Program-made: the position numbers and the translations under genes
Notes under the pieces: generated by a model
What the model was told of the DNA's origin: nothing
The model's input: only the letters and a program-made list of their open reading frames with translations
Databases searched by the model: none
Shown: positions 3,053 through 27,825 of the stretch, one piece after another
Numbering within the stretch: position 1 is the stretch's first letter
Layout: each line of letters opens with the position of its first letter
NCBI RefSeq assembly: GCF_009193295.2
Contig: NZ_CP059973.1
Location: 62,001 to 126,000 of the forward strand
Origin: Bacteroides luhongzhouii
Lineage (GTDB): Bacteria > Bacteroidota > Bacteroidia > Bacteroidales > Bacteroidaceae
Reading direction: 5' to 3'
DNA: 64,000 nucleotides

Positions 3053-3127
3053 AATACAAAATTATTATTAAAGTAACTAATCTATTTAAAAAGTTTACAT
3101 GTCTGCCAAAGCTTCAAACAATAAGAA

Positions 3128-3866
3128 TTACTGCACCTTAAACAACGAATCAAATTCTGTCCATTTTCCCAAAGCCTTGGCCATCTGTGCAACGCAATAA
3201 TCGTCATAAATACCTTCCAAGAGTTTGGACACTGTCTCGCGACCATTATCGATATCCGCACAATGTATAATCATCTACAAACTTCTGTTCAGCCTCAAGC
3301 ACATTATCCTTTATATTGTCCACATTCCAACTTCTACCATATTGTAAATCAATCAATAGATGAGCCGTTTGATTATCTTTATATGTATAACGATGATATG
3401 CGACGTGATCCAAAGCTGTTAATTCAACTCTGACCTGATGAGTGATTAACTCAACAGCATAATAGCCTGGCGCAGCCTGTTCCGCTTCTTTCTTATAAGT
3501 CGAACGAAAATCAGAACGTTTTCCTGTCCTTTTCACTTCACCCGAATAGGGCAACAACAAAATATCAGACAATGACGGGCAACCCACCCCGTTTAAATGA
3601 GTTTGAGTAAATCCCCATATATATGGATCACTATATTGATAACCGGAAATATGCTTCCCTTCATAACCTGTATAATAATCAGAAGTAGTCTCCGGACTAG
3701 GTTGAACAAATCCTAACGGTCTAATAGCACCAGGAAAACAATTGCCACCCCCCTGAGTACCTATAAAAGGATTTACATATTGCGTATAATCCTTTAAGCC
3801 AATAGAGGCATTGGCATATAAGCAGTATAATAAATCGAATATAAATATCCAGCAAAAATGGCGCAT
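3128..3866 (-). pseudogene. GH92 alpha-mannosidase pseudogene with internal deletion
   Basis: The first reading frame (ATG at 3866, stop at 3246) encodes a signal peptide and about 185 residues of a GH92 N-terminal domain: YTQYVNPFIGTQGGGNCFPG, the Pro-rich IRPLGFVQPSPETT, and SGYQYSDPYIWGFTQTHLNG. GH92 enzymes are normally over 700 residues with a C-terminal catalytic domain. Straight after the early stop, the sequence resumes in another frame (3128-3250) as GRETVSKLLEGIYDDYCVAQ followed by MAKALGKWTEFDSLF and a stop. That segment matches the ETVSKTLEYAYDDWCIAQ-type motif of the GH92 catalytic domain. I conclude that roughly the middle third and the C-terminus were lost by an out-of-frame deletion. 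An ATG at 3866 is preferred over the GTG at 3890 because it begins the signal peptide. Confidence 0.88.
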
Positions 3867-3892
3867 CTTAATAGAATTATCAATAATCACAA

Positions 3893-4981: not shown

Positions 4982-4985
4982 TTTT

Positions 4986-7127: not shown

Positions 7128-7210
7128 ATTATATTTTTTAATGAATTTATTTTTCTAACAAGACTTCCTTTCATCTTACGCTTCTACCGAAATTTAGATA
7201 TCTAAGGCAA

Positions 7211-9106
7211 TCAATCAACAAAAGTCCAAATGGCTTTAATATCCATTTTTTTACCTTTGGTTCGAATAATCAACGGGTAGACATCTTCACCTTTCTTCAA
7301 TCCTTTAGGTGGAATACCGGGAGCTACTCCAATAAATAATTCATACGGAGAATGAACTACTAAAGAGAGTTTTGTTCCATCACTCATAGAAAAAGAAAAG
7401 GTGCCTTTACCAGGACTCCTACGTACTTTTGATATCCTTTCATATTCAAGTAATGTGTCTTTCCTTTCTGACGGTAGAGAGATGGAATCACGCAATATCA
7501 ATGTATAGTCATAAGTATGTTCCACATCCGACTCACATGTAAAATGATCTACCAACTTTATACCTTCTAAGGAAAGAGTGCGATGCATATTCACTCCTAC
7601 ATATGCACTGTCAGACACAGCCTCTATTACACCTCCGCGAGAAGTCGGCTTAAATAATACTATTTTCCCCTTAGATGCTTTTTGATCTTTCTTATCAATA
7701 GTCACTGTGTTATGAGATATTGTTTTTCGATACCAGGCATAGCAATCCGGCACACCATAAGCTGTAGTTCCCAAGTCCGGCAGGATTTCCCTACGTCCGT
7801 CATGAATGCTGATAGACAATTTATCCGGATGTCCATGCAACCCACCACTGGGACCATTCTTCAGAACAACCGTTTTATTCTTAGAGCGCAATACACCAAC
7901 ACCTAAATCGGGAAATAAATGACTACTTAAAGAAACTCCGGAATCATGACATTTCAGCTCCATTCCATTAATTAACGCATCTGGTGATTTCCGTTCTATT
8001 TTCTCATAACAAGCTGCCAATACATCTATTATCTTTTGATTTCCTGTACGCAAAGCAACTATTTCATATAAGCCAGCCTGTTCTAACAATGTTGTTCCAT
8101 ACCAACCGTCGTTTTGAGAAGGAAACATTAGATCCGAGTAAAGCATATTGACCGGAGACAAAAACATATTAATAACCTTCTCGTCATACAGGTTTATATG
8201 ACGACACCTTACTGCCTCAGCAGAAAGAAGAATAGCCCTTAAAGGGTAAAAATGATAAACAACCGATCCTTCATTCCACCAGCCATCATTATATACATTC
8301 TTTTTCTGCATATCATAATATCCCAGATCCGGTTTGTTTAAAGCAGCATTGATGATAGAATCATTTTTCAAAGCAACCCCTAATGCTATTATTCCTCCAT
8401 TATGCCAAACTTGCCAGTTCCCCTTATCGCGGCTGGATAGCAGCAAGTCTGCACAGGGACGCAGGAAACCTTTTTCTATTTGAAGACGTTCTTGCGGTGT
8501 CATTTCTACAGAAGCAACCAAAAATGCACGGGCCGCATCTATAGCCCATACAGCTTCATCCAAGCTTTGGGAGAACAGTTTGCCGCTAGTGCCCGGAGTA
8601 TATTTTCGCTCCCGGTCATGGATTTTATAGGCAGGATACTTATGAGATAAGTCCAAGAGCATGGAAGTTATATTATCCGCATATCTTTTTTCATCTGTGG
8701 CTAAATACAAATACATATTCGCCTTCAAATAGTCCAAGTTAGCTCCATGAACAAAATTCACCCATGCCCAGTCATACCTGTCAACATCACTCCATTTCTT
8801 CTTACATACTGTGCAATAGTGCGCTTTGGGGCTTTCCCAGTCAAATACAAATTGGGTGTTATGAATCGGACAAAAATAATGATGCCCATGCCCACCTTCC
8901 AAAGCTGGTATAGCTAATGAATGTTTTTCCCTTTCCGCAATGGTTCCAGCAAGTTCACCCAAAATTTTCTTCCCCCACTTTGTCTTAGACGAGGATTTTA
9001 TATTACTGATATCCTCTGCAGAATAAAAATAAAAATTCTCATCTTGTTGGGCAAAAGCTGTTCCAACAAAAAATAACAAGTATATAAATAAAACAGATTT
9101 ATTCAT
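7211..9106 (-). CDS. heparinase II/III-family polysaccharide lyase, exported
   Basis: With the ATG at 9106 the protein has 631 residues and starts with a clean signal peptide (MNKSVLFIYLLFFVGTAFAQ). An ATG six codons upstream (9124) is possible but gives a worse leader. An N-terminal alpha-toroid is followed by a C-terminal beta-sandwich typical of heparinase II/III-like lyases; landmarks are HGHPDKLSISIHDGRREILP, DLGTTAYG and KTISHNTVTIDKKDQ. Near residues 79-101 is a Cys-x2-His and Cys-x2-Cys pair that looks like a structural metal site. Such enzymes cleave uronic-acid glycans by beta-elimination, leaving an unsaturated uronic acid, the substrate of the adjacent GH88. The 8-nt overlap with the GH88 stop suggests coupled translation. 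The exact PL family cannot be fixed by eye. Confidence 0.85.
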   Translation of the reverse strand: MNKSVLFIYLLFFVGTAFAQQDENFYFYSAEDISNIKSSSKTKWGKKILGELAGTIAEREKHSLAIPALEGGHGHHYFCPIHNTQFVFDWESPKAHYCTVCKKKWSDVDRYDWAWVNFVHGANLDYLKANMYLYLATDEKRYADNITSMLLDLSHKYPAYKIHDRERKYTPGTSGKLFSQSLDEAVWAIDAARAFLVASVEMTPQERLQIEKGFLRPCADLLLSSRDKGNWQVWHNGGIIALGVALKNDSIINAALNKPDLGYYDMQKKNVYNDGWWNEGSVVYHFYPLRAILLSAEAVRCRHINLYDEKVINMFLSPVNMLYSDLMFPSQNDGWYGTTLLEQAGLYEIVALRTGNQKIIDVLAACYEKIERKSPDALINGMELKCHDSGVSLSSHLFPDLGVGVLRSKNKTVVLKNGPSGGLHGHPDKLSISIHDGRREILPDLGTTAYGVPDCYAWYRKTISHNTVTIDKKDQKASKGKIVLFKPTSRGGVIEAVSDSAYVGVNMHRTLSLEGIKLVDHFTCESDVEHTYDYTLILRDSISLPSERKDTLLEYERISKVRRSPGKGTFSFSMSDGTKLSLVVHSPYELFIGVAPGIPPKGLKKGEDVYPLIIRTKGKKMDIKAIWTFVD

Positions 9107-10304
9107 CACTGTTTGGCTTACCATTATTATAAATTTTATTCAAACGGATTAATGCCTCTATATAATAATAATCAGCATATATGATTGACGCATCTATTTC
9201 CGTTCCACCAGGCTTATGTCCTGTGGAATGAAGAAGAAACGCATTATTAGTTTGTCCGCCTCGATAAGCTGGAGAAGATAATGCCTTTATCATTTCTACT
9301 GCAGAATTAAAATAGGCATCCGCCTTTGCCTTGTCTTTCACATACGAGCTCAGTTCTAACAGTCCCGAAGCCACCACAGCAGCTGCCGAAGCATCACGAG
9401 GTTCATTGAGTAAATTGGGAACATCAAAATCCCAATAAGGAATATAGTCCTCAGGCAGTCTTTTCAAATAAATGTCTGCCGCCTTTTGTGCTATCTCCAA
9501 AAAAGACGGTTCACCCGTTTCTCTATAACACATGGTGAAACCATAAATAGCCCATGCCTGTCCCCGTGCCCACATTGACTTATCCGCATACCCTTGATGT
9601 GTTAATTGGCTGATTCGCTTCCCATTGATTGTGTCATATACAACCACATGACAGGTACTGTAGTCTTCTCTGAACTGATTTCGTGAAGTCACCAGCGCAT
9701 GGCTATAAGCTATATTGTACAAATCTTTGCCTCCCCCGTTTTTAGAAGCCCAAAACAGGAGTTCCAAGTTAAGCATATTGTCAATAATCGTATTATGCGG
9801 CCATCCCTTTTGTTTCCGCATTCCGGGCCACGAGTGAATCGTCCCCACTCTCTTGTCAAACAAAGTGGCTAGCGAATCAGCTGTACGAAGCAATATTTCT
9901 TTGTATTTTTGCTCTCCTGTAAGCCTGTAAGCATTGCCGGAACTACAAAACATCATAAAACCCAAATCATGATCATCGGCTTTACGATCTACTACAGGAA
10001 ACAGGGCTGAAGAGTAACGTTCAGCCTGTTTCTTGATTTCATTATCACGCGTATACTCATACACATACCATAAAATACCCGGCCAGAAACCACTTGTCCA
10101 ATCATAAATGGAAGTACAATTCCATTGTTTTTGTCCCTCACCGGACAAAATATTCCGTGGCATTCGGGTTGTATCATTCAACACTGCAAGACTTTTTTTA
10201 GTTTGTTCCTCACAATAATTCAATGAAGAAGCCACATCAAAATCAGAATGAGAAGAACATGAACAGAAAAGTGCAAGCAGACTACCTAATATACATTTCT
10301 TCAT
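9099..10304 (-). CDS. GH88 unsaturated glucuronyl hydrolase, lipoprotein
   Basis: The 401-residue protein is an alpha/alpha-toroid hydrolase that removes the 4,5-unsaturated uronic acid from oligosaccharides made by polysaccharide lyases. Characteristic motifs are YDWTSGFWPG (67-76), HDLGF with Asp113, and NTIIDNMLNLELLFW with Asp175. The two Asp residues correspond to the catalytic pair (Asp88 and Asp149) of the Bacillus unsaturated glucuronyl hydrolase. The N-terminus MKKCILGSLLALFCSCSSHS ends in a lipobox-like cysteine, so it is probably a periplasmic-face or surface lipoprotein. Its start lies 1 nt after the stop of the upstream GH97 gene, and its end overlaps the heparinase-like gene. 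The neighbouring lyase supports the assignment strongly. Confidence 0.94.
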   Translation of the reverse strand: MKKCILGSLLALFCSCSSHSDFDVASSLNYCEEQTKKSLAVLNDTTRMPRNILSGEGQKQWNCTSIYDWTSGFWPGILWYVYEYTRDNEIKKQAERYSSALFPVVDRKADDHDLGFMMFCSSGNAYRLTGEQKYKEILLRTADSLATLFDKRVGTIHSWPGMRKQKGWPHNTIIDNMLNLELLFWASKNGGGKDLYNIAYSHALVTSRNQFREDYSTCHVVVYDTINGKRISQLTHQGYADKSMWARGQAWAIYGFTMCYRETGEPSFLEIAQKAADIYLKRLPEDYIPYWDFDVPNLLNEPRDASAAAVVASGLLELSSYVKDKAKADAYFNSAVEMIKALSSPAYRGGQTNNAFLLHSTGHKPGGTEIDASIIYADYYYIEALIRLNKIYNNGKPNSDE

Positions 10305-14953: not shown

Positions 14954-16690
14954 TCAGAATCCTGGATTATTGGGGAACTCTGCTTGGGAATTCGCATCAA
15001 TAACCGATTGGGGAATAGGACCTAGGTTATTTCTTTCTCGCACTGTCTTTGCAGAAGCCTCATAACCAAACCTCTTAACCCTATCGTAAAGCAGTCCCAT
15101 ACGGCATAGGGTAAGTGTACGGAATTCTTCAGCATAAAGTTCACGGGCTCTCTCATCCAGTAGATAATCAATGTTCACATCTGCAGCTTCCACCGGTTTT
15201 GCATTGGCACGGTTTCTTACTACATTGATATCTGCAGCGGCTTTATCTTTGTTGTCATTCTTCAAATACGCCTCAGCACGTATCAAATAAGTTTCAGCTA
15301 AACGAATAGCGTACCATTCCATAACAAAACCATTAGCCGGTTCGGCAGCATAGTGCCAATCTGAACCACATTTCATGATACGAGGATAAAAACGCTCCAT
15401 TGTATCTTGTCTGGTAGTTAGCCACTCTTTCTTAATAATATCACCCGGTCTCAGTTTTACTACAATATTTGTTCCATCCTCCAAAGTCACACCTGTTTCG
15501 TAAACCTTATTAGGATCATCCACTTCAACACCATTAACGATTGGTTTAGGAGCTCTATAAATACGATTGATATTGAATTCCGCATTACGCTGATCCTCCG
15601 AACCTGATTTTCCCCACAAATCATAACAGAAGTACGGAGTAGGACGTACCCAAGAAATACCACGGCCAGTCCAGTCACGGGCATTTCCGTCATAACCAAA
15701 TTTTGTAGTTCCCCAAAAAGCTGGCCAGAATACACGTTCTTGATCAGTACGGGTAGCTAAACCATCATTTAATCCACCCTGTACGAATTTATCTACCTGA
15801 ATAACCCAAATAGACTCTTTGTTTCCAGTCTGATAACTAAAATTCGAGAATCCATCTTCGCTTTTCATTTGGAACAGATCCCAAAAGGCATCCTTCCCTG
15901 CTACATCCTTACGCCATCCAAAGCGTTCTGTCATCAAATGATACTCTCCTACCTTTTGGTCAATTACCATAGAGGCTGCATCTATCGCTTTTTGATACAT
16001 GCTCTTATCGCCAGTTTCATCCCCAAGAGCAATATACATCTCTGCTAAATAATGATAGGCAGCTGCCTGAACCACTCTTCCTGGCTCTGTTACAGAAACC
16101 GGAAGGTTCTTAGCCGCAAAATCAAAGTCCTCGATACATTGTCTATACACATCCTCACGACTATCACGTGTATAAGCAAGGGATGGAGTTCCTACCGGCT
16201 CCGTCAGGATAGGTACCCCTCCAAACAGAAAACCTAAATAACGGTAACAATATCCTCTAAAGAAACGGGCTTCTGCCTGGGCCGCCAACTTTTCAGCCTC
16301 ATTGCTCCATCTTACATCCGGATTTTCCGTCTGCTTCAACAATGTATTCACATTATAAAGCATACCAAAATGACGTCCATAAACAACACGGTAAATATCT
16401 GTGGTCGAATTTACCAAACTCCAGTCTGTATACATATCCATATCAGAAACTGGACGAAACATAATATCCGTACCAATACCAAATTGAAAGAAATAATTAG
16501 GATCATCCCTAAAATTATAATTCTGACGAACAATTCGGTAAAATTCATTCAAACCAGTTCTGAACTGGGAAGCATTTAAATAAGAATTATCGACTGTAAG
16601 AAAATCATCTGCATTCTCCTTCAAAAAATCACTGTCATTACATGCACAGAGAGAACAGAGTGACAATGCCAAGCATATTAATTTTTTCAT
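14954..16690 (-). CDS. SusD/RagB-like outer-membrane glycan-binding lipoprotein
   Basis: The 578-residue protein has a lipoprotein signal with the cysteine in CLALSLCSLCACNDSDF, followed by the alpha-helical TPR-rich SusD fold. Typical landmarks are ANNAEKLAAQAEARFFRGYC-type helices (here NEAEKLAAQAEARFFRGYCY), and a C-terminal WYAIRLAETYLIRAEAYLKN followed by NVVRNRANA and LLDERARELYAEEFR. SusD proteins form the lid over a SusC pore and bind the oligosaccharide on the cell surface. It is encoded 21 nt after SusC, and the two form the import complex of PUL 1. Confidence 0.96.
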   Translation of the reverse strand: MKKLICLALSLCSLCACNDSDFLKENADDFLTVDNSYLNASQFRTGLNEFYRIVRQNYNFRDDPNYFFQFGIGTDIMFRPVSDMDMYTDWSLVNSTTDIYRVVYGRHFGMLYNVNTLLKQTENPDVRWSNEAEKLAAQAEARFFRGYCYRYLGFLFGGVPILTEPVGTPSLAYTRDSREDVYRQCIEDFDFAAKNLPVSVTEPGRVVQAAAYHYLAEMYIALGDETGDKSMYQKAIDAASMVIDQKVGEYHLMTERFGWRKDVAGKDAFWDLFQMKSEDGFSNFSYQTGNKESIWVIQVDKFVQGGLNDGLATRTDQERVFWPAFWGTTKFGYDGNARDWTGRGISWVRPTPYFCYDLWGKSGSEDQRNAEFNINRIYRAPKPIVNGVEVDDPNKVYETGVTLEDGTNIVVKLRPGDIIKKEWLTTRQDTMERFYPRIMKCGSDWHYAAEPANGFVMEWYAIRLAETYLIRAEAYLKNDNKDKAAADINVVRNRANAKPVEAADVNIDYLLDERARELYAEEFRTLTLCRMGLLYDRVKRFGYEASAKTVRERNNLGPIPQSVIDANSQAEFPNNPGF

Positions 16691-16711: not shown

Positions 16712-19700
16712 TTAAAATGTAACTTCCACTCCCATAGTTATATTACGCAAAGCAGGATTACCATGAGCATAGGCCGTACCTGTTTCAGGATCGATTCCTT
16801 CCCAAGAAGTAAATGTCAGAAGGTTCTTTGCAGCCACATAGAATTTCAAGCTCCGAACAGGAGTTTTACTTAAGAGCTTTTCGTCAAATCTATAAGCTAA
16901 AGAAAGGTCTTGCAGACGTAAAAAGTCATGACGCTGTGGGAACTTATACTGATAAGGATTCGTATAATTTGGACGAGGAACCTTGTTAGAAGGGTGTTCA
17001 GGCATCCAATATTCCTTATTCAGCCAGTTAGCAGTACCACCACCGCCAAAGGTTCCAACATAATTAGCATAAATATTATCAGCAATATAATAATTATTTT
17101 TTCCACCACCAGAAATCCAGTTCAGTAAAAAATAGAGTTCAAAGTTTTTATACGTCAAGGTGTTGGACATTGTCATTGTAAAGTTAGGCTTAGAATACCC
17201 TACAATTTTACGGTCACCGTTAGCATCAATCTTACCATCATTATTTAAATCCTTGAATTTGACATCACCTGGATTACCACCATAAATTGCCATATATTCG
17301 AGGTCATCTTCCTGAATAATGCCGTCAAATACATAAGTATAGACTGCACCTAATGATTTGCCAATAAAAAGATTATTAGCGATATCATCATCTTCTACAC
17401 CATCGCCATCACCATCCAAGCCATATAGTGAAACCACCTTATTACGGTTCATCCAAAAATTCAGACCTGTAGACCAAGAGAAATCTTTTGTCTCAATATT
17501 CCTTGATCTCAAAGAGAATTCAAGTCCCCAGTTTTTCACTTCACCAATATTATCGGATACATTCTGAAAACCATTCATTACAGGAATAGCACGATTCAAC
17601 AACAGGTCAACAGTTCTTGAAGAGTAATAATCGATATTACCACTCAAACGATCATTGAACATTGAGAAATCGACTCCAACATTCCATGCACCAGTCTTTT
17701 CCCAAGAGAGTGCCTTGTTAGCTAAGCCACTTGAAGCTGAAGTGTTTGCTGTTTCCTGACCGAACAGATAAGATCCGGAACCCATTTTTGAGAAAGTGGA
17801 ATAAGAACCAACAGACGGATTACCATTTTCACCATAAGATAATCTAAATTTCAAGTAGTTGATTAGCTTCACATGATCTCTAAAAAAAGCTTCATTGCTC
17901 ACAGTCCATGCACCGGCTAACGAGAAAAAATCACCGTATTTATTACCATCCGCAAAACCGGAATAGCCATCACGACGTATAGAAGCAGATGCATGATAAC
18001 GCTGTTTATAAGCGTAATTGGCACGAGCCATATAGGCCAATTGAGAAAGAACTGTTTTATCGGTATTAATACCTCTTTTTGCAGGATTACCTAATTCTAG
18101 CGAATGAATACCCAGAACTGTAGAGCCTGCTGCTTTGAAATCTTTAGCACTCAATTCAGACTTGGTAGTAGTTGCCCTCTGACGTTCTGCCAATAAAGTC
18201 AAGTCTACCGAATGATCACCAAATGTACGATTGAAGTTGACCAAATGGTTCATAAACCAGTCTGTACGTGTAGAATGACTTTTGCTACCATTTGCGTCTA
18301 CCAAATACTTCGTTTGATCATAGAGGTCTTTTTCATCCAATGTATTCATAAAATAACGCTCATCTTGGAAGTTTGCACCATGTCCTTCCCAACGATTTAA
18401 AGAGAAGTTGAATGTATAAGACAAACCTTTTATCCAAGGCAAATCAACACGAGCAAATGTCAAACCATTATAATTCTGATTTCTGTCTTCATTGAATTGT
18501 CTTGTCTGCCACAACGGGTTAATAGTAGTCTGATGTCCCTGAGGAGAACGCTCCATCTCGTGTTCAAATCCTTCAAAACGAACATACTTATAACCATAAG
18601 GAGTGTTGTTTACAGCGTTTCTCATATCCGCTTCTTTACCGTCCGCATTTTTGTTAACAACAGATAACTTTAAACCAACCTTCAGCCAGTCTGTAACCTG
18701 TGATTCTATTTTGGAGGTTACAGAGAACTTTTTGAATTGGTCATTGTACATAATACCATCTTGATCAAGAAACTGACCAGAAACATAATAGTTCAGTTTA
18801 TCCGTTCCACCGGAAATACTAAGCTGATAATCTTGAGAAAGCCCCATACTAACACATTCATCATACCAATCAATTATATTGCCCTCCTGGTAAGCAGAAT
18901 ATTCATATGGGGTCAACAGATTCTGCAATTCTAAATCTGCTTCAGAAGCACCGTTCATTCTTCTTAAGTCTTTCTTTAATTGAAGATATCCTTCAGGAGA
19001 AAGCATATCCGGCCTCGTTGTAGGAGTCTGAAAGCCTACAGTCGCGCCAAAACGTATAGTCGGCTTTTCACTCTTACCACGTTTAGTTGTAACCAAAATT
19101 ACCCCATTGGCAGCTCTCGAACCATAAACTGCTGCGGAGCTTGCATCTTTCAGAACATCGACTGAAGCAATATCACTAGGATTTAACTCATTCCAACTTC
19201 CGAGATGAACAACACCATCAACAACAATCAATGGATTATTGGATGCCTTAATAGAGTTTTGACCACGGATATTAAAGCTAGGATTACCTCCCGCATTAGT
19301 AGCAGTACCAATGTCTAAACCTGGAAGTTGACCTTTCAAAGCATCCAACACGTTCATATTAGGAAGAGACATACGAGGAGAATCTTCTAATCTAATGGAA
19401 GCAATAGACCCTGTCAAGTCCTTCTTCTTAGCAGAGCCATAGCCTATCGCAACGACTTCATCTAGAATCTGTGAATTCTCTTCCATCCCAATTTTCAATT
19501 TCTTCACGGCAGAAGTCACTTGAACTTCTTTTGAGTTGTAACCAATGTAATGTACCACCAATGTACCGTTTATAGGTATATTGATCACAAAATTACCATC
19601 CACATCAGATACGACACCATTTTGCGTTCCTTTTTGAATAACCGATGCTCCAATCAAAGGATCACCAGTCCCCTTATCAAACACATATCCCTTTACACTT

Positions 19701-19795
19701 ATGTTTTGCGCAAACATAAATGTAACAGATAAAGCACATAACAAACTAAAAATCCAGAAACGTTTGTTCTGATCCATAAAATTACTACATTTCAT
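16712..19795 (-). CDS. SusC/RagA-like TonB-dependent transporter
   Basis: The protein has about 1027 residues from the ATG at 19795 (an ATG at 19777 is also plausible; the TTG at 19801 is unlikely). After the signal peptide (RFWIFSLLCALSVTFMFAQ) come a CarboxypepD_reg-like domain (SVKGYVFDKGTGDPLIGASV), the plug with LDEVVAIGYGSAKKKDLTGS, NIRGQNSIKASNNPLIVVDG and ASSAAVYGSRAANGVILVTT, and a long beta-barrel ending in an aromatic C-terminus. There is no N-terminal STN domain, so it is not linked to an anti-sigma factor. It imports oligosaccharides across the outer membrane with TonB energy. A promoter with operator-like repeats lies 70-135 nt upstream. Confidence 0.96.
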   Translation of the reverse strand: MKCSNFMDQNKRFWIFSLLCALSVTFMFAQNISVKGYVFDKGTGDPLIGASVIQKGTQNGVVSDVDGNFVINIPINGTLVVHYIGYNSKEVQVTSAVKKLKIGMEENSQILDEVVAIGYGSAKKKDLTGSIASIRLEDSPRMSLPNMNVLDALKGQLPGLDIGTATNAGGNPSFNIRGQNSIKASNNPLIVVDGVVHLGSWNELNPSDIASVDVLKDASSAAVYGSRAANGVILVTTKRGKSEKPTIRFGATVGFQTPTTRPDMLSPEGYLQLKKDLRRMNGASEADLELQNLLTPYEYSAYQEGNIIDWYDECVSMGLSQDYQLSISGGTDKLNYYVSGQFLDQDGIMYNDQFKKFSVTSKIESQVTDWLKVGLKLSVVNKNADGKEADMRNAVNNTPYGYKYVRFEGFEHEMERSPQGHQTTINPLWQTRQFNEDRNQNYNGLTFARVDLPWIKGLSYTFNFSLNRWEGHGANFQDERYFMNTLDEKDLYDQTKYLVDANGSKSHSTRTDWFMNHLVNFNRTFGDHSVDLTLLAERQRATTTKSELSAKDFKAAGSTVLGIHSLELGNPAKRGINTDKTVLSQLAYMARANYAYKQRYHASASIRRDGYSGFADGNKYGDFFSLAGAWTVSNEAFFRDHVKLINYLKFRLSYGENGNPSVGSYSTFSKMGSGSYLFGQETANTSASSGLANKALSWEKTGAWNVGVDFSMFNDRLSGNIDYYSSRTVDLLLNRAIPVMNGFQNVSDNIGEVKNWGLEFSLRSRNIETKDFSWSTGLNFWMNRNKVVSLYGLDGDGDGVEDDDIANNLFIGKSLGAVYTYVFDGIIQEDDLEYMAIYGGNPGDVKFKDLNNDGKIDANGDRKIVGYSKPNFTMTMSNTLTYKNFELYFLLNWISGGGKNNYYIADNIYANYVGTFGGGGTANWLNKEYWMPEHPSNKVPRPNYTNPYQYKFPQRHDFLRLQDLSLAYRFDEKLLSKTPVRSLKFYVAAKNLLTFTSWEGIDPETGTAYAHGNPALRNITMGVEVTF

Positions 19796-19865
19796 AAACA
19801 AAGATTTAATTAAACAAAGTTTATATTACGGACTTAATTACAACTAACAATTCTTAAGAATATTG

Positions 19866-19930
19866 CAAAATAAGCGAATAATTCAAGAGACTCAAATAGA
19901 CTATTTATCTAAAAAGATAGACTATTTTAC
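19866..19930 (-). promoter_or_regulatory. susC operon promoter with tandem AraC-type operator repeats
   Basis: On the minus strand a Bacteroides-type promoter can be read: -33 TTTG (complement of 19893-19896), 19-nt spacer, -7 TTATTTTG (complement of 19866-19873; one mismatch to TAnnTTTG). Overlapping and upstream are two copies of ATAGACTATTT (19896-19906 and 19917-19927) exactly 21 bp apart, two helical turns, as for AraC-family half-sites. The proximal copy overlaps the -33 box. The distal copy extends to AGATAGACTATTTTAC (19915-19930), nearly identical to a site before the MFS gene. I infer binding of the divergent AraC regulator. Confidence 0.7.
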
Positions 19931-19984
19931 TGCAAACATACAATCTTACGTACACTACTGTTTTATACTGATACTGATTTGAGA

Positions 19985-21934
19985 CTAATAAATCTTAGCA
20001 ACCCAACCACCGCCTGAAGCTAAAGATATATTCAGAACTTCCCCACCTTCAACCTCTATAAGTTCATGTTTATAATCAATAGCACGAATATCAGCATTAA
20101 TACCATCTTTAAAAATCTCCATCTTATACTTCTTCCCTTTAGGCAAAAAGCTTAAATCCAGTTTCATCTTTCTTGGACTCCAATCTGTAATAGCAGCTAC
20201 ATACCATGAATCTCCACTTCTACGAGCCATAGTCACGTAATCACCTATTCTACTGTCAAGTGGCACGATTTCATCCCACTCAACAGGGATATTTACCAAA
20301 AACTCCGTACATTCGGCCTCTTTATAATAGTCAGATTGAGGATCTGGCAACATCTGCATAGGACTTTCAGCAATAACGGCCATTGCCATGAAATGTGCCC
20401 TTGTACCTTGCCCCATCGGTGTGTCATGGTTAAAACGAAATGATTTTTTGGTAGCATTATTCAATGTTCCGGGGATGTAATCCATGGGACCGGCCACATT
20501 ACGAATAAAAGGAAGCATGCAACGATTATCCGGATTATCTTTATAAGTTCCACCATTCTGCTCAAATTCCACCAAAGCCTCTCTTGTCAAAACATTGGGA
20601 TAGGCTCTTCTTAATCCATCAGGACGGTATGCGCCATGGAAATCAAGTACCATCTTATACTCAGCCGCTCTTTTTGCAGCTTTCCAGTAGAAATTAGATG
20701 CCTCTTGATCGGAACGGTTGATAAAATCAATCTTTAATCCTTTGATGCCCCATTCGGAAAATTTAGCCAACGCAGCTTCCATCTGGCTATCAAATAGATC
20801 GTAAGTGACCCAAAGCATCACATCCACTCCTTTTGAAGTAGCATAATCTACCACCTCCTTCATATTAAGACCGTCAATCGTCCGTGTCAAATCCTCTTTA
20901 TATGTCCAACCATCATCAAATAAGAAATAACGAATGCCAAAATGGGAAGCGAAATCTATCATATATTTAGCAGTCTCTGTATTAATGCCAGCCTTAAAGT
21001 CTACATTATATAATCCCCGTCGTGCCCACCAGTCAAAGGTTACCCATCCCGGCTTTATCCAAGAGGGAGCCTCAATCTGACATTTAGGTGCCAACTGATA
21101 AACCAACTGATTATTCAGCAAATCCTTATCTTCCGAAGCTATAGCAAACACACGCCAAGGAAAAGTTCTCTTTCCGGACGTCTTAGCTATGTAATTCTCA
21201 CAAGTAAGAATTTGTCTTCTGTTCTTTGAATTACCTTTAACATTATAAGTCTTAGGATAATTCCAGAAATGAGCTCTCAAATCCCTATTCCCTTTTTCTA
21301 ACCATAAACAAGGATAATCCTGCAAATCAGACTCTAATAAAAGCACATTCACTCCCGATGGAGTTTTTACTAAGGCCGGATAATTACCAGTTACCCCTTG
21401 CTCTATATCTTGAATTTTCTGTTCTACATAAGGTGCCTCATAGTCACTATTCATATTAGCGTCTTTCTGAAAAAACAAAGTGGAAGAAGGATCAAAAGCA
21501 AAGTCTGCAGCTTCATCAAAAATTGTAAGCTCCCCTTTACAATTGGTAGAGATGCGATAAGCTACTCCATTATCATATAAACGAATTTCCAGCTTTGTCT
21601 TGTCAGCAAACAGTAATGAAATCTCATTATATCGATCAACTATCCGAGAATTTTTCTCCTTTATTTCCGGCACAATTATTTGATCAACAGCATTTTTCTT
21701 TATCGAATGTACTTTTGCATTTAGCTTAGGTAACATACCTTGATCTGTATCCAAGTAAATATCACGAACTGTAAACAGGACATTTTCTTTGTGCAGTACC
21801 TGCATAGAAACATTCTTTTCAGCCGTCACGACAACATGCAATACTTTATTTGGCGAGGAAAGATTAACCTCTTTAGCCCCTGCAAACAAAGGATACAGAA
21901 GCAATAAAAGCAGATTGATTTTTAGTTTATTCAT
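19985..21934 (-). CDS. GH97 glycosidase with retaining-type active-site signature
   Basis: The 649-residue protein has a signal peptide (about 1-20) and the GH97 three-domain layout. In the barrel, GIKGLKIDFINRSDQ carries Asp403, the nucleophile position of retaining GH97 enzymes such as the alpha-galactosidase BT1871. DFHGAYRPDG has Gly434 in place of the base Glu of SusB-type enzymes, and VLTREALVEFEQ carries Glu452, the likely acid/base. The best prediction is a retaining alpha-galactosidase or related activity; the sugar is inferred. It is the last gene of the MFS-DUF5107-GH97 unit and is followed by 183 nt containing the susC promoter. Confidence 0.92.
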   Translation of the reverse strand: MNKLKINLLLLLLYPLFAGAKEVNLSSPNKVLHVVVTAEKNVSMQVLHKENVLFTVRDIYLDTDQGMLPKLNAKVHSIKKNAVDQIIVPEIKEKNSRIVDRYNEISLLFADKTKLEIRLYDNGVAYRISTNCKGELTIFDEAADFAFDPSSTLFFQKDANMNSDYEAPYVEQKIQDIEQGVTGNYPALVKTPSGVNVLLLESDLQDYPCLWLEKGNRDLRAHFWNYPKTYNVKGNSKNRRQILTCENYIAKTSGKRTFPWRVFAIASEDKDLLNNQLVYQLAPKCQIEAPSWIKPGWVTFDWWARRGLYNVDFKAGINTETAKYMIDFASHFGIRYFLFDDGWTYKEDLTRTIDGLNMKEVVDYATSKGVDVMLWVTYDLFDSQMEAALAKFSEWGIKGLKIDFINRSDQEASNFYWKAAKRAAEYKMVLDFHGAYRPDGLRRAYPNVLTREALVEFEQNGGTYKDNPDNRCMLPFIRNVAGPMDYIPGTLNNATKKSFRFNHDTPMGQGTRAHFMAMAVIAESPMQMLPDPQSDYYKEAECTEFLVNIPVEWDEIVPLDSRIGDYVTMARRSGDSWYVAAITDWSPRKMKLDLSFLPKGKKYKMEIFKDGINADIRAIDYKHELIEVEGGEVLNISLASGGGWVAKIY

Positions 21935-21956
21935 ATTTTTCAGACATAAGAAGTTA

Positions 21957-24900
21957 TTACTTATTTATCATATTATTATGTATCTGTACACCTTGATGAT
22001 TATTATCCAAGTGGGATGCAATATCAAAATAGCTTTTTGCCTTCTCCATATTACCAAGCCCCAAATGTCCAAGTCCCATCAGATAGTTGCAATGAACGAG
22101 ATTTTTCTTATTCATATCATCTTCCCAAATTTGTAAATCAGGAAGAGATACTGCAAAATAGTCCATTTTGAAGCGATCAAATAAATGTTTTTCACCAAAA
22201 TCAATCAACCGATTAAAACGACTACGAGCATTCTCTTCATCCCCCATTTTCAAGAAGGCTAACCCCTGATAAAATATTTTATCAGGTTTCTGATCATTAT
22301 AATACATTGCAGCTACCGGCAGGCTATCTCCCAGACTAGCTTTCACAAATAAGCGTTGTGCTTCTGCATCCCGTCCCATCGCTTGCATAATACAACCCTT
22401 ATAATAATTGAAATCATTTTCTTGAGCTCCTTGCAACTTACCCTCTCCCAAGTTATGAGGATAGACAAAACATTCATCTATCAACTTCAATGCTTTTTCA
22501 TATTCCTTCAAGTTCAGATATTTTTTCACCAATTCTACACGAGACAATTGATATTGAGCAGGTACTTTCCCTTCGCCACCTTCCCAAGGATGAAAATGGC
22601 GGTTATCAATCATGTGGATAGCTTCTTCATAACGCCCTAACTGATTTAACAATGTCACATACTCCAGATAAAGATCGTCACGCGAGAACGTAACCTCTTT
22701 ATGTGCATCAAGTAAAGACAGTCGCTCTTCATGCGGACGGTTAAGACACTTATATAATTGATCCAGTTCCATCAACACACGAGCATCCTTTACATCCAAC
22801 AAAAAAGCCTTCTCTAATAAAGCAACCGCCTCTTGTTTTCGATCTAATTTATTAAAATATGCCAGAGAAAGATTACGGAATACAACTGGAAAAGTAGCAT
22901 CCTGTTCAACAGAGGTCTCCCAAGCAGCTACAGCTTCCGCATATTGCCTCTTGTCATACCACAAGTTACCCAAATAATACAAAGCTTTAGGAGCCTTCTT
23001 TATAAGTCCAATAACGGTTTGAAGAGCTAATATTGCCTCCAAAGTGTTTGGAAAACAATAATCCGGCGATTGTAATTCAGCCACTCTCGCCACAGCCGTA
23101 GCTGCTTCTGTCTCACCAAGCCGAAGCAAAAACCAAGCCTTATAGTAATATAATAGTGTCGGTTGTAATACCGAAAAATCAATTGCGGCATTCACCACTT
23201 TAAGTGCTTCCTCCCAACATCCGCATGAAGCATAATCCAAAGCAAGCTCTTCGTAATTATGGCTTTCTCTACGCATTTGTGTCATCAATAAATGCAGATT
23301 TTCTTCATCTCCTGTTATAAGGTATTTTTCAAAACTACATCCAAAGTTAAAGTGATCATAGGATAATGATTCCTCTATCAATGCCAAAGCTTTATCCATT
23401 TCTCCCAAATGGCGCAAAATGATTGTTTTCAAATGCCTACCTCGTAAATTACACCAATTTCGCATTAATGATTTGTCTACTTCATAAAGCGCATTTTCCC
23501 AGTCATTCCATGTTGCTGATATCTGTGCTAAAGAATAATAACTCATATGCTGCCATGCATCATTCCAGCATGCCTTATAAAAATAGTCATATGCTTCAGT
23601 GAGCTTGTCTTGATATTTAAGAGAGAGTCCCAAGTTATATAGCGGCTCTCCGTCATAAGGATTCGGATTTTTCTCTGTCAAAGTCTTTACTGCCTGACGT
23701 AAATAAGATTCAGCCTTGGCAAACTGTCCTTTACGCAATAGCCAAAGTCCCATAGCATTGTTATTTCGAACATCACTCGAATCTCTATTCAGGGCTTCTT
23801 GATAATAATCTGTAGGCATATAAGTAGCATGGCGATACTGTTCCAAATGCAAACCGGTTAGATACAGTTGTTCTGTAGTCGAGACATCTTTCGGATCTAA
23901 AGCCGCCTTAGCCGCTTCCGGTACCTCTTTAATGTCTTCTGGCTCTGGTCTCCATTTCAACAAGCACTTACCTTTGGAATTAGAGATAGTGACACATACG
24001 TCTTTAATCTCTATAATTTCGACCTTTTCTCTCAAATCATTTTCAGGAGTAACATCTCTGATAATATCAAGGACTGTATTCCCAAATTGAGTTACAGTTA
24101 TATGAAGTCCGGTTTGTGTTGACGTAGCAAATACCTTCAAAATTGCACAGTCCACTCCGATTTCAATATTCATCAATATGTCTTCAGAAGCATTTTTCAC
24201 TACCCCCAATTCTCTATAAGGAATAAAATATTGAACAAATGTTTTTTCCTCATAAGGTTGCAGCCATGTAAAATCAGGTTGATTGTCTGTGTACACACCG
24301 GCCATTAGCTCAATATACGGACCATCTGTATCCGTTAAGTTACGATCCCATGCTTGGCCAAAGTCTCCATTACCCCATGTCCATTGTTTCTTACCTGGTG
24401 AAATATGGTGGTTTGCCACATGTAAAACTCCTGCACGTGTATCGTTCTCGTATCCACCTACAAAGTTATATTTTGAACGTATAGCCATATATGAAGTAGG
24501 TACAGGGATATTTTTATAACGAGAGATATCAACTCCGGAGGAATAATCCATTTTATAATAGGTTCCCGTAGCAATAGGATAACGAGAGACGTCACGTTTA
24601 CCATGGTCGAAAACTGCATTAACATCTTCGGGAAACACCGACTGATAATATTCATTCACTGCAACAGCAGGATTGGCCCACCACAAGAATGTTTGAGGGA
24701 AAGGAGTCGGATTATATACTTTCCCTTGTATTTCAAGTCGGGCACATCCCGGACGTAATGTAAAACCAGCCATACCTTTTTGATGGAACATACGTTCTCT
24801 TTCATTTACCCAAACGATTGCACTACCATCTTCTTTCTTTTCTATATGATAGTCAACCGGCAAATAAGTGCTCGGACGATGGTGTTGTGGCCAGTTAAAC

Positions 24901-25250
24901 TCAATACCTCCAGAAATCCACGGTCCGGTTAATCCCACCAAAGCCGGTTTAATGACATGATTATAATATATAAAATGACGTTGTTTCACCTTGTCATACG
25001 CCATTTGTACGCGTCCTCCCAATTCGGGCAAAATCATGACTTTGATATATTCATTTTCCAGATAGATTACATGATAACTTTGCTCCTTACAAGTATCTTC
25101 TATCTTTTCAATAACAGGATATGGATAAACGACTCCACTACTACCTTGATATACCCGCTTCTCAAGAAACATGGGATTTTTCTCGGCTTTACCGATAGCA
25201 TAGGTAGGAAGAAGAATATCCTCCTCCCAAACTTTTACTTCTTCAATCAT
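21957..25250 (-). CDS. DUF5107-like domain protein with C-terminal TPR repeats
   Basis: This 1097-residue protein has no signal peptide and should be cytoplasmic. Residues about 1-400 resemble DUF5107, a mutarotase-like beta-sandwich: the segments ILPELGGRVQMAYDKVKQRH, GPWISGGIEFNWPQHHRPST, GKVYNPTPFPQTFLWWANPA and HHISPGKKQWTWGNGDFGQA are rich in conserved aromatic and His residues. From about 470 to the end are many tetratricopeptide repeats (for example YQEALNRDSSDVRNNNAMGL and KALYYLGNLWYDKRQYAEAV). Its biochemical role is not established to my knowledge. Between a sugar transporter (7 nt upstream) and GH97 it probably handles an imported sugar or oligosaccharide. The family match is by eye. 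Confidence 0.8.
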   Translation of the reverse strand: MIEEVKVWEEDILLPTYAIGKAEKNPMFLEKRVYQGSSGVVYPYPVIEKIEDTCKEQSYHVIYLENEYIKVMILPELGGRVQMAYDKVKQRHFIYYNHVIKPALVGLTGPWISGGIEFNWPQHHRPSTYLPVDYHIEKKEDGSAIVWVNERERMFHQKGMAGFTLRPGCARLEIQGKVYNPTPFPQTFLWWANPAVAVNEYYQSVFPEDVNAVFDHGKRDVSRYPIATGTYYKMDYSSGVDISRYKNIPVPTSYMAIRSKYNFVGGYENDTRAGVLHVANHHISPGKKQWTWGNGDFGQAWDRNLTDTDGPYIELMAGVYTDNQPDFTWLQPYEEKTFVQYFIPYRELGVVKNASEDILMNIEIGVDCAILKVFATSTQTGLHITVTQFGNTVLDIIRDVTPENDLREKVEIIEIKDVCVTISNSKGKCLLKWRPEPEDIKEVPEAAKAALDPKDVSTTEQLYLTGLHLEQYRHATYMPTDYYQEALNRDSSDVRNNNAMGLWLLRKGQFAKAESYLRQAVKTLTEKNPNPYDGEPLYNLGLSLKYQDKLTEAYDYFYKACWNDAWQHMSYYSLAQISATWNDWENALYEVDKSLMRNWCNLRGRHLKTIILRHLGEMDKALALIEESLSYDHFNFGCSFEKYLITGDEENLHLLMTQMRRESHNYEELALDYASCGCWEEALKVVNAAIDFSVLQPTLLYYYKAWFLLRLGETEAATAVARVAELQSPDYCFPNTLEAILALQTVIGLIKKAPKALYYLGNLWYDKRQYAEAVAAWETSVEQDATFPVVFRNLSLAYFNKLDRKQEAVALLEKAFLLDVKDARVLMELDQLYKCLNRPHEERLSLLDAHKEVTFSRDDLYLEYVTLLNQLGRYEEAIHMIDNRHFHPWEGGEGKVPAQYQLSRVELVKKYLNLKEYEKALKLIDECFVYPHNLGEGKLQGAQENDFNYYKGCIMQAMGRDAEAQRLFVKASLGDSLPVAAMYYNDQKPDKIFYQGLAFLKMGDEENARSRFNRLIDFGEKHLFDRFKMDYFAVSLPDLQIWEDDMNKKNLVHCNYLMGLGHLGLGNMEKAKSYFDIASHLDNNHQGVQIHNNMINK

Positions 25251-25257
25251 GTTTTAT

Positions 25258-26634
25258 CTATTTTTTTATTAATTCTTTTTCTAATTCTTCTAATGTCTTT
25301 CCTTTTGTTTCAGGCAAATTTGACCGGATAAAAAGAAAGCCCGCCAAACAAATGCCACCATACAACCAGAATATACCTGCTGCTCCTACAGATTCATTAA
25401 GAATAGGGAATGTATACGTCAAGAGGAAGCAGGCCACCCATAAAAAAAATGTTGAAAGAGCCATTGCCATTCCCCGTATTCTCACCGGAAATATTTCAGA
25501 AAGTACTACCCAGACAACGGGAGCTAATGACATGGCATAACAAGCAATGGCCAATATGACAAGCAACAACATTGGCCATCCGCTCACCCCGCAATAATAA
25601 CATGTACCCAAAATAAGATAGATTGCCGCCAATCCAATTGAACCTATAAACATTAGATTCCGGCGTCCCCACTTATCCACAGTGTAGATAGCCACAAATG
25701 TAAAAATAACATTGGTAACACCTGTCACCACAATATTCATCAAAACATCAGAGACTTGATAACCAGCTGCGGAAAATATTTCGTGCGCATAATTGAAAAT
25801 AACATTAATACCACACCATTGCTGAAAGATAGCCAGTACGATACCTATTATCAGCACTTTTCGAACTGACAAATGAAAAAGTTGTCTCCAATTGCTTTGC
25901 TGTTGCTGCTCTGTAACTAGCCGAATTATCTCTGACGAGGTCTGCTTTGCATAATCATCTCCACCTATTCGAGCTAAAATGATTTGCGCTTTATCCATCT
26001 GTTGATTAGCCGCTAACCAACGCGGGCTTTCAGGGATCATAAATGCAAGAATAAAAAACAGCCCTGCAGGAACCAACTCTCCCCAAAACATCCATCTCCA
26101 AGCCCACTCCACGCTTTCCGCACTAAGAGTAGTTGAATCCGCCGCATAATACTCTCCTATCTGCCAATTAGCAAGTTGAGCCATCAATATACCTAATACA
26201 ATAGTTAATTGATTTAAAGAAACGAATTTTCCTCGAACCGGAGCTGGAGCCACTTCCGCTATATACACAGGGGATATATTGGATGCGATTCCAATGCCAA
26301 ATCCACCCACAATCCGATAAAAAATAAACCAGTCAAAATCATTAACCGCACCCGTTCCATAAGCTGACAACACAAAAAGAAATGATGCAATAATCAGCAT
26401 TTTTTTACGTCCATAACGGTCACTCCAACGTCCTGAGAGTAAAGCCCCAACCAAACATCCGACCAAAGCGCTACTCATAGCCCAACCTCGAAGCACAGGC
26501 AAATCTTCCAATCCCCAAAAAGGTTCATAAAAAATCTTAGCACCACCAATCACTACCCAATCATAGCCGAATAACAGCCCACCCATAGCCGAGACCAGGC
26601 AAATCAATAACAGATAAACATTATTCTTTTTCAT
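25258..26634 (-). CDS. MFS sugar transporter (sugar porter family)
   Basis: The 458-residue protein has 12 predicted membrane segments. The sugar-porter signatures are LSGRWSDRYGRKKML between TM2 and TM3, VYIAEVAPAPVRGKFVSLNQ, PESPRWLAANQQ before the central loop, QQWCGINVIFNYAHEIF in TM7, the VDKWGRRNL loop, and PETKGKTLEELEKE at the C-terminus. It should be a proton-coupled monosaccharide importer of the inner membrane, resembling XylE and GLUT-type carriers. It is the first gene of a unit with the DUF5107-TPR protein and GH97, and a promoter/operator lies just upstream. The transported sugar cannot be read from the sequence. Confidence 0.93.
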   Translation of the reverse strand: MKKNNVYLLLICLVSAMGGLLFGYDWVVIGGAKIFYEPFWGLEDLPVLRGWAMSSALVGCLVGALLSGRWSDRYGRKKMLIIASFLFVLSAYGTGAVNDFDWFIFYRIVGGFGIGIASNISPVYIAEVAPAPVRGKFVSLNQLTIVLGILMAQLANWQIGEYYAADSTTLSAESVEWAWRWMFWGELVPAGLFFILAFMIPESPRWLAANQQMDKAQIILARIGGDDYAKQTSSEIIRLVTEQQQQSNWRQLFHLSVRKVLIIGIVLAIFQQWCGINVIFNYAHEIFSAAGYQVSDVLMNIVVTGVTNVIFTFVAIYTVDKWGRRNLMFIGSIGLAAIYLILGTCYYCGVSGWPMLLLVILAIACYAMSLAPVVWVVLSEIFPVRIRGMAMALSTFFLWVACFLLTYTFPILNESVGAAGIFWLYGGICLAGFLFIRSNLPETKGKTLEELEKELIKK

Positions 26635-26656
26635 AATATATCAATAGAAGTTGCTG

Positions 26657-26720
26657 CAAAGGAAAACAATAATATTTATACAGGAAATAGAAAAAAATAT
26701 ATAAAGATGGACTATTTTAC
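26657..26720 (-). promoter_or_regulatory. MFS operon promoter with AraC-type operator-like motif
   Basis: Minus-strand elements repeat the susC layout: a weak -33 TTTC (complement of 26684-26687), a 19-nt spacer, and a -7 TTCCTTTG (complement of 26657-26664). The distal motif AGATGGACTATTTTAC (26705-26720) matches the susC site at 15 of 16 positions. The proximal copy is reduced to AAATAG (26685-26690), 26 nt from the distal ACTATTTTAC against 27 nt at susC. Identical placement relative to the promoter supports common control, probably by the adjacent AraC-family protein. Confidence 0.65.
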
Positions 26721-26847
26721 TACTTAGCAAAATACAGACTATAAAAATAGCATAAAGACCATAAGTCAATCAGAAGAAAAAAAGTAATCACTACTATCTA
26801 CTATGTTAAAATGCAATATAACAAACTGACTATATTTATAATATATA

Positions 26848-26855
26848 TATATTTG
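26848..26855 (+). promoter_or_regulatory. candidate -7 box for the araC-type gene
   Basis: TATATTTG matches the Bacteroides TAnnTTTG -7 consensus perfectly and lies 82 nt before the regulator ATG. No convincing -33 TTTG is found at the usual spacing, so support is partial. The surrounding sequence is very A/T-rich. Confidence 0.45.
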
Positions 26856-26937: not shown

Positions 26938-27825
26938 ATGATTAAGAAAAAAGATGGATTTAGCGGCGAAAGAGCAGTTGTACTTCCCCAGTTCATTATA
27001 CATGAAATGGAAGAAAATCCCGTATCGACTCATTTACATATTACCGATATCGGCTATTACCCCAAAGCAAAATTTCACTTTATCGAGCGGTCAGAGCCTA
27101 TCTCCCAGTATGTATTTATTTATTGTTATGAAGGTAAAGGATGGTATCAACTAAATGGAAAAAGATATACTGTCAATGCCAATGAGTATTTCATCTTGCC
27201 TGCTGGAATTCCTCACTCCTATGGTTCTGCTGATGATTCACCATGGACTATCTATTGGATACACTTCAAAGGGAAGCTGGCTCCCTATTTTTCTGCGCAA
27301 TGTTCACATCCCATAGAAATCAAACCTGGAATACAGTCCCGGATTAATAACCGAATAGACATGTTTGAGGAGATTTTGCATACGCTAGGAATGGGCTATA
27401 GCCACGAAAACCTATTGTATACCTGCTCCATTTTCTATCACTATCTTGGAACATTAAGATATCTCCAGCAATATAGAGGAGCCGTTCAACAGGATTCAAA
27501 CTCTACAGATATAATCATTGAAACAATACATTACATGAAAGAGAACATTGAACGAAAACTAACACTCCAAGAAATCGCCAAACATACAGGATATTCAATT
27601 TCTCGTTTTTCTTCATTATTCAGCCAACGAACAGGATATTCCCCCCTGACTTATTTTAATATGCTCAAAATCCAACAGGCATGCTATCTGTTGGACTTCA
27701 CAAACATCAAAATTAACCAAGTCTGTTACAAAATAGGCATTGACGATCCTTATTACTTCTCACGTCTATTCAATAAAATCATGGGAATGCCTCCTAAAGA
27801 ATACAAAAAACTCAAAAAAGGCTGA
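26938..27825 (+). CDS. AraC-family transcriptional regulator with cupin sensor domain
   Basis: The 295-residue protein has an N-terminal AraC-binding cupin (about 30-150; YCYEGKGWYQLNGKRYTVNA, FILPAGIPHSYG) and a C-terminal double helix-turn-helix (about 195-292; LTLQEIAKHTGYSISRFSSL and INQVCYKIGIDDPYYFSRLF). The cupin normally binds a small sugar signal and the HTH pair binds two direct-repeat half-sites. It is divergent from the MFS-DUF5107-GH97 unit, and matching bipartite sites precede that unit and susC. I infer it activates PUL 1 in response to a monosaccharide, so this PUL uses an AraC activator rather than a hybrid two-component or ECF sigma system. Confidence 0.93.
   Translation: MIKKKDGFSGERAVVLPQFIIHEMEENPVSTHLHITDIGYYPKAKFHFIERSEPISQYVFIYCYEGKGWYQLNGKRYTVNANEYFILPAGIPHSYGSADDSPWTIYWIHFKGKLAPYFSAQCSHPIEIKPGIQSRINNRIDMFEEILHTLGMGYSHENLLYTCSIFYHYLGTLRYLQQYRGAVQQDSNSTDIIIETIHYMKENIERKLTLQEIAKHTGYSISRFSSLFSQRTGYSPLTYFNMLKIQQACYLLDFTNIKINQVCYKIGIDDPYYFSRLFNKIMGMPPKEYKKLKKG

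What the first reader, a model, noticed from the sequence alone, without database searches (positions are those of the whole stretch)
19866..26720. Shared bipartite operator overlapping the -33 box of two PUL 1 promoters
The motif AGATrGACTATTTTAC occurs before susC (19915-19930) and before the MFS operon (26705-26720), 15 of 16 bases alike. At susC a second copy of ATAGACTATTT lies exactly 21 bp away, the spacing of AraC half-sites; at MFS the second copy is weak (AAATAG). At both places the proximal half overlaps a -33 box followed by a 19-nt spacer and a -7-like box. This gives a concrete operator for the divergent AraC-family protein and predicts stronger control at susC than at MFS.
Basis: partly seen in the sequence, partly recalled or inferred. 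Interest (0 to 1): 0.7.

Follow-up and report, generated by a model that had tools for sequence, protein, structure and literature searches.

The report
AraC-type operator pair in PUL
Two promoters of one sugar-degradation gene cluster carry the same two-part regulator binding site, which is conserved in many related bacteria together with a neighbouring AraC-type regulator gene, so it is very probably that regulator's switch; the arrangement is well made but of a known kind.

Summary
Both motif copies are in place; the exact pattern occurs nowhere else in the 5.76 Mb genome. Of 80 araC-type loci, 46 have TCYAT-TCYAT at exactly 21 bp on the MFS strand (no other spacing from 8 to 44 exceeds 7); in 45 of 46 a -7 box starts 27 nt after half 2. 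Two models without window sites rank the MFS and susC sites first and second genome-wide. Of 158 same-genus genomes, sites (R1, E<=1e-5) occur in 40 of 40 with a close AraC relative and 5 of 118 others. The nearest relative keeps the susC operator. Elsewhere sites precede MFS, SusC and glycosidase genes. Best reading: class-II AraC-type activator sites, half 2 on the -33 position. One claim fails: the 'weak' MFS half is the family consensus, and MFS outscores susC in every model, so stronger control at susC is not supported. Binding and expression are untested. New member of a known kind.

The parts
19915..19933 (-). susC operator, half 1 (distal; A-box-like GTAAAAT plus TCTATC)
19894..19900 (-). 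susC operator, half 2 (TCTATTT), 21 bp from half 1, overlapping the -33 box
19893..19896 (-). susC promoter -33 box TTTG
   Evidence: consensus as quoted in PMC7366714
19866..19873 (-). susC promoter -7 box TTATTTTG, 27 nt after start of half 2
26705..26723 (-). MFS operator, half 1 (GTAAAATAGTCCATC); with half 2 the best operator match in the genome
26685..26691 (-). MFS operator, half 2 (TCTATTT), 20 bp from half 1, overlapping the -33 position
26657..26664 (-). MFS promoter -7 box TTCCTTTG, 27 nt after start of half 2
26938..27825 (+). AraC-family regulator (cupin-type sensor plus two-HTH DNA-binding domain), inferred binder of both sites
   Evidence: Pfam AraC_binding, HTH_AraC, HTH_18; co-occurrence
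25258..26634 (-). MFS sugar porter, first gene after the MFS operator
   Evidence: Sugar_tr / sugar porter family
21957..25250 (-). DUF5107 + TPR protein, next gene on the same strand (same operon inferred from the 7-bp gap)
19985..21934 (-). GH97 glycoside hydrolase, third gene (same operon inferred from the 22-bp gap)
16712..19801 (-). SusC-type TonB-dependent transporter, first gene after the susC operator (an in-frame ATG begins near 19795)
14954..16690 (-). SusD-type lipoprotein downstream of susC
26848..26855 (+). Candidate -7 box TATATTTG of the araC gene itself, 90 nt before its ATG
   Evidence: sequence only

Best explanation
The two sites are operators of the AraC-family protein encoded at 26938-27825. 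A dimer binds a direct repeat: half 1 (A-box-like RTAADAT plus B-box TCCATC) and half 2 (TCTATT), normally 21 bp apart. Half 2 sits on the -33 position of a Bacteroides primary-sigma promoter whose -7 box starts 27 nt after half 2. With its sugar ligand bound, the regulator occupies half 2 and recruits RNA polymerase (class-II activation, as at E. coli araI1-araI2), turning on MFS-DUF5107-GH97 and susC-susD together. Shown: the sites, their geometry, conservation, genome-wide rank and co-occurrence with the regulator. Inferred: binding, activation rather than repression, operon extents, and a ligand imported by the MFS porter.
For: 46 of 80 araC loci have TCYAT-TCYAT at 21 bp on the MFS strand against at most 7 at any other spacing from 8 to 44; a -7 box starts at 27 nt in 45 of those 46 (52 of 54 with 20- and 22-bp spacings included). 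The G of a -33 TTTG at the 19-nt spacer position is present in only 2 of 46 sites, as expected where an activator replaces that contact. Model R1 (39 sites, none from the window): MFS rank 1 (E 1.3e-8), susC rank 2 (3.1e-7); rank 3 (5.8e-4) matches only model positions 29-73 and lies inside an ORF that reads like susD. Model R2 (14 sites; by coordinates none is an araC place printed): the same two rank 1 and 2. R1 sites at E<=1e-5 in 40 of 40 genomes with a close AraC and 5 of 118 others; R2 sites at E<=1e-4 in 39 of 40 and 6 of 118. susC operator kept in G047 although about 3.8 kb lie between GH97 and susC there. The site stays beside the regulator also where the divergent gene is not MFS (GH2, GH92, GH95, DUF5107). 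The C-terminal HTH region aligns with E. coli AraC 2k9s, DDPYYFSRLF against DDQLYFSRVF.
Against: No binding, expression or start-site data. 11 of 80 araC loci show no site above the cut in the DNA held (some contigs are short). At the looser cut E<=1e-3, R1 sites are in 15 of 118 genomes without a close AraC, 8 of them with no homologue better than 1e-54. G046's site lies beside a different AraC-type protein, so specificity may be shared among AraC types. A TTTG occurs somewhere within -2 to +12 of half 2 in 10 of 54 sites, so the -33 element is not always lost. Activation rather than repression rests on geometry alone. The window's MFS site has 20-bp spacing.
Confidence: 0.83

Rival explanations
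1. Same operator and regulator, but the AraC-type protein represses by blocking the -33 position and is released by ligand.
For: Half 2 covers the -33 position; susC in the window has a full TTTG there.
Against: The -33 TTTG at the 19-nt spacer position is nearly always incomplete (G in 2 of 46 sites), so most of these promoters look activator-dependent; a pure repressor would not need so rigid a half 2 to -7 distance (45 of 46 at 27 nt).
Confidence: 0.1
2. [quoted passage not shown]
For: HTCS motifs in Bacteroides are also direct repeats averaging 21 bp (PMC3878776, passages); the best PDB sequence match of the regulator's domain is an HTCS protein.
Against: Co-occurrence with this one AraC group (40 of 40 against 5 of 118); the site stays beside the gene across genera; I saw no HTCS among the ORF translations listed for window 1-40000; window 40000-64000 was not examined.
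Confidence: 0.05
3. The conserved block is a promoter signature of an alternative sigma factor or a chance AT-rich similarity, not an operator.
For: AT-rich; 1 of 60 shuffles reaches a 15/16 match between the two intergenic regions; the 11-base core is not enriched in the window.
Against: The -7 box fits the ordinary sigma-ABfr one; the spacing between halves varies (20-22) while half 2 to -7 does not; the best of 2.96 million first-order Markov positions scores 8.6, against 40.2 and 55.4 for the window's sites.
Confidence: 0.02

Closest known systems
E. coli AraC at araBAD (araI1-araI2)
   Same: Two-HTH AraC-family regulator with cupin-type sensor domain; araI2 binding recruits RNA polymerase and araI1 binds more tightly (passages of PMC4760080), like the strong half 1 and short proximal half 2 here. 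That E. coli's sites are direct repeats 21 bp apart with TCCAT in the B-box and araI2 at the -35 is recalled, not looked up.
   Different: Bacteroides primary-sigma promoter (-33/-7); the protein scores 102 bits against the AraC equivalog cutoff of 208; targets are PUL genes; no looping site was sought.
HTCS operators of Bacteroides thetaiotaomicron (PMC3878776)
   Same: AraC-type DNA-binding domain; direct repeat averaging 21 bp; regulons with SusC/SusD genes (passages).
   Different: HTCSs are hybrid sensors with a periplasmic domain; this is a one-component protein beside an MFS porter.
RhaR (BT3768), the AraC-family regulator in that study's monosaccharide table
   Same: One-component AraC-family regulator of sugar genes in Bacteroides.
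   Different: Rhamnose regulon; its motif was not seen here and no orthology was tested.

Membership tests
AraC/XylS family regulator | C-terminal domain with two AraC-type HTH motifs | tested here: met
   HTH_AraC 3.4e-18 (2 stretches), HTH_18 4.9e-17
AraC/XylS family regulator | N-terminal cupin-type ligand domain (sugar-sensing branch) | tested here: met
   AraC_binding 4.2e-17
E. coli AraC orthologue (arabinose regulator) | NCBIfam AraC equivalog score above curated cutoff | tested here: not met
   102.4 bits against cutoff 208
AraC-type class-II operator | Two half-sites in direct repeat about two helical turns apart | tested here: met
   46 of 80 loci at 21 bp; window 21 and 20 bp
AraC-type class-II operator | Proximal half overlaps the upstream core promoter element | tested here: met
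   Half 2 start to -7 box 27 nt in 45 of 46 and at both window sites; positions of start sites themselves not mapped
AraC-type class-II operator | Regulator binds and activates from this site | not testable with these tools
   Needs EMSA and expression data
HTCS-controlled PUL | Hybrid two-component sensor encoded in the locus | tested here: inconclusive
   None recognised among the ORF translations listed for window 1-40000; only selected ORFs were scanned with Pfam; 40000-64000 not examined

The most novel reading that the evidence does not exclude
A portable control cassette: one AraC-MFS pair, spread through several Bacteroidales genera, keeps a fixed operator-promoter geometry and captures different degradation genes (SusC, GH2, GH31, GH35, GH36, GH92, GH95, GH97) simply by having the half 1 / half 2 / -7 unit before them, so that a cytoplasmic sugar signal rather than a membrane sensor switches whole PULs.
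Probability: 0.45. Interest if true: 0.62.

Novelty: new member of a known kind. Interest (0 to 1): 0.45.

Why it matters
HTCS, SusR-like and ECF sigma systems are the PUL regulators treated in the passages I saw (PMC3878776, PMC10766802). This gives a precise, scannable operator for a one-component AraC-type regulator whose close relatives are in 40 of the 158 same-genus genomes searched, and it predicts regulon members genome by genome. It also offers a natural system for asking how an activator replaces the -33 contact of the Bacteroides primary sigma factor.

Tried and rejected
Look-alike at 22153: in coding sequence of the DUF5107/TPR gene, with similar minus-strand matches in many relatives' loci; rejected as coding.

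Rank-3 genome hit for R1 (G000:C1:5206526): inside an ORF that reads like susD (by its translation; not scanned with Pfam), matching only model positions 29-73, so no half 1; rejected.

Fixed-geometry autoregulation of araC: on the araC strand the first -7-like box lies 23-26 nt from half 1 in 13 of 54 loci, elsewhere at many other distances. In the window the candidate araC -7 box is about 140 nt away. Not supported as a general rule.

In G047 the PWM gives 45.1 (MFS) and 45.4 (susC), R1 35.1 and 24.2 bits; score is not regulation strength.

Literature: 8 searches were answered. Six papers were opened and only passages around my search terms were seen: PMC3878776, PMC7366714, PMC4760080, PMC12125979, PMC10766802, PMC5061871. 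None of those passages describes this operator or regulon; their supplements and figures were not seen, and subscription papers are not in the library.

Caveats on counts: the PWM was trained on 46 of the sites it then re-finds; R1 training loci partly overlap the 158 genomes. R2 was made to avoid this; I compared its 14 training loci with the araC places printed by coordinates, by eye, and found none in common (that printed list is cut at weak matches). Multi-genome model searches use stricter filters that lose some weak matches. The 'close AraC' cut (E<=1e-95, 40 genomes) was set; 14 further genomes have a more distant homologue (1e-54 to 1e-87), of which 3 have a site at 1e-5 and 7 at 1e-3; of the other 104, 2 have one at 1e-5 and 8 at 1e-3. 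L068 is one of the 54 but was matched on the wrong pair of half-sites; it was dropped from the logo, and near-identical sites were removed, leaving 46 of 53. The gene classes were assigned against a reference set that holds some of the same ORFs, so single-member classes rest on the Pfam.
Full report
WHAT IS THERE. The window carries a PUL on the minus strand: MFS sugar porter (25258-26634), DUF5107/TPR protein (21957-25250), GH97 (19985-21934), then after a 183-bp gap susC (16712-19801), susD (14954-16690) and further genes. An AraC-family regulator (26938-27825) lies divergent to MFS. Further down are a 551-aa protein without Pfam match, an endonuclease/exonuclease/phosphatase protein, a second GH97, GH88-like, heparinase II/III-like, GH31, aldose epimerase, a GH92 N-terminal piece and NAGLU.

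MORE THAN CHANCE? On its own the 15/16 match is modest (1 of 60 shuffles), and the 11-base core is not enriched in the window. But ATRGACTATTTTAC is exact at only these two places in the 5,760,088-base genome. Eighty relatives of the regulator were fetched from named genomes (340 stretches encoded relatives, best 80 kept); many are divergent to an MFS gene. In their upstream regions (up to 420 nt, MFS strand) 46 of 80 have TCYAT-TCYAT at 21 bp; the next commonest spacing is 17 with 7, and the opposite strand has at most 1 at any spacing. A T[AT]nnTTTG box then starts exactly 27 nt after half 2 in 45 of 46, or 52 of 54 with 20- and 22-bp spacings included. The window's two promoters share the 27; their half-site spacings are 21 (susC) and 20 (MFS).

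THE CONSENSUS. On the coding strand half 1 reads about AAtMRTAADATnGTCCATC, half 2 TCTATTT, then at +27 TAnnTTTGCA (46 non-redundant sites). With a 19-nt spacer the -33 TTTG would start at the fifth base of TCTATTTG; its G is present in 2 of 46 sites, while a TTTG anywhere from -2 to +12 of half 2 occurs in 10 of 54. The published promoter is TTTG near -33 and TAnnTTTG at -7 (PMC7366714, passage). Half 2 therefore occupies the -33 position and mostly replaces it, the expected form of an activator-dependent promoter. susC in the window keeps the full TTTG; MFS has TTTC.

GENOME-WIDE AND HELD-OUT TESTS. A PWM from the relatives scores 55.4 (MFS) and 40.2 (susC), the only window positions above 15; the best of 2.96 million Markov-simulated positions is 8.6. 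It finds a site above 15 somewhere in 69 of the 80 loci, training sites included. Model R1 (39 sites, none from the window) ranks MFS first (37.1 bits, E 1.3e-8) and susC second (32.6 bits, 3.1e-7) in the genome; the third hit (22.1 bits) is inside an ORF that reads like susD.

CO-OCCURRENCE. Of 158 same-genus genomes, 40 have a close AraC relative (E<=1e-95). R1 sites at E<=1e-5 are in 40 of 40, against 5 of 118 others, three of which carry a more distant homologue; at E<=1e-3 the others rise to 15 of 118. R2 at E<=1e-4 gives 39 of 40 against 6 of 118; the one missed is G047.

THE SUSC SITE. In the nearest relative, G047 (AraC 89% identical), the orthologous susC (84% identical) has the operator directly before it (score 45.4, spacing 20), although about 3.8 kb lie between GH97 and susC there instead of 183 bp. 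Alignment of the four promoters keeps GTCYA, TCTATT and TTTGCA in all four (pairwise intergenic alignments). Spacings 20 and 21 occur the other way round at susC and MFS in the two genomes, so the 20-bp spacing is not a mark of a dead site.

REGULON IN RELATIVES. Over the loci examined (L001-L080, L160-L184 and the window), 97 distinct sites score above 25: 61 before MFS; 7 before susC genes, the window's and G047's included; 11 before GH2-type genes; 2 each before GH31, GH35, GH36, GH97 and DUF5107; 1 each before GH92, GH95 and a SASA esterase; 2 before proteins not assigned to an enzyme family; 3 without an assigned gene (families). This set was enriched by fetching regions because they held sites, so the proportions are not a census. 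The signal is probably a sugar imported by the MFS porter; families that often act on galactosides (GH2, GH35, GH36, GH97) are among the targets, but this is inference.

HOW IT WORKS. See Best explanation. The DNA-binding domain aligns with E. coli AraC (2k9s) over 96 residues and with an HTCS protein (12aw). In E. coli the distal araI1 binds more tightly and araI2 binding recruits polymerase (PMC4760080, passages), which matches the strong half 1 and the short, promoter-proximal half 2 here. That E. coli's half-site also contains TCCAT is recalled, not looked up.

The MFS second copy is not weak but the family consensus; its spacing is one base short. All three models score MFS above susC in the window, and susC has the better core promoter. 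Stronger control at susC is therefore not predicted.

VERDICT. A conserved, regulator-linked operator pair; a new member of a known kind (AraC-type class-II sites; HTCS sites of Bacteroides share the 21-bp repeat, PMC3878776, passages). Its interest lies in the tight geometry, the breadth of spread and the recruitment of SusC and many glycosidase genes to one cytoplasmic regulator. Binding, activation and ligand are untested.

Noticed in passing
window 3246-3890 (-): A 214-aa ORF matches only the first 170 of 236 positions of the GH92 N-terminal domain; it looks like a truncated GH92 gene.
   Followed up: partly
window 890-10304 (-): The PUL includes NAGLU, heparinase II/III-like, GH88-like and GH31 genes, which may point to a uronic-acid-bearing glycan as substrate (inference).
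   Followed up: no
L160 8731-15374: In G047 the MFS, DUF5107 and GH97 genes each match in two separate pieces, possibly assembly errors.
   Followed up: no
L181 around 2633: G046 has an operator-like site (score 35.1) beside a different AraC-type protein (21% identical over 181 residues), so related AraC types may share this geometry.
   Followed up: partly
L172 3647-3692, L175 3731-3776 and L044 7288-7340: Two back-to-back operators a few tens of bases apart face divergent genes: GH97 and GH2-type (L172, L175), MFS and an 808-aa protein without Pfam match (L044).
   Followed up: partly
L079 around 15605: Before an MFS gene, TCCATC is followed by an inverted copy (GATGGA) rather than a direct repeat.
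   Followed up: no
G000:C1:421467, 627797, 4797958, 5428900: Four equally scoring partial R2 hits of the same length (48 bases), possibly copies of a repeated element; their letters were not looked at.
   Followed up: no
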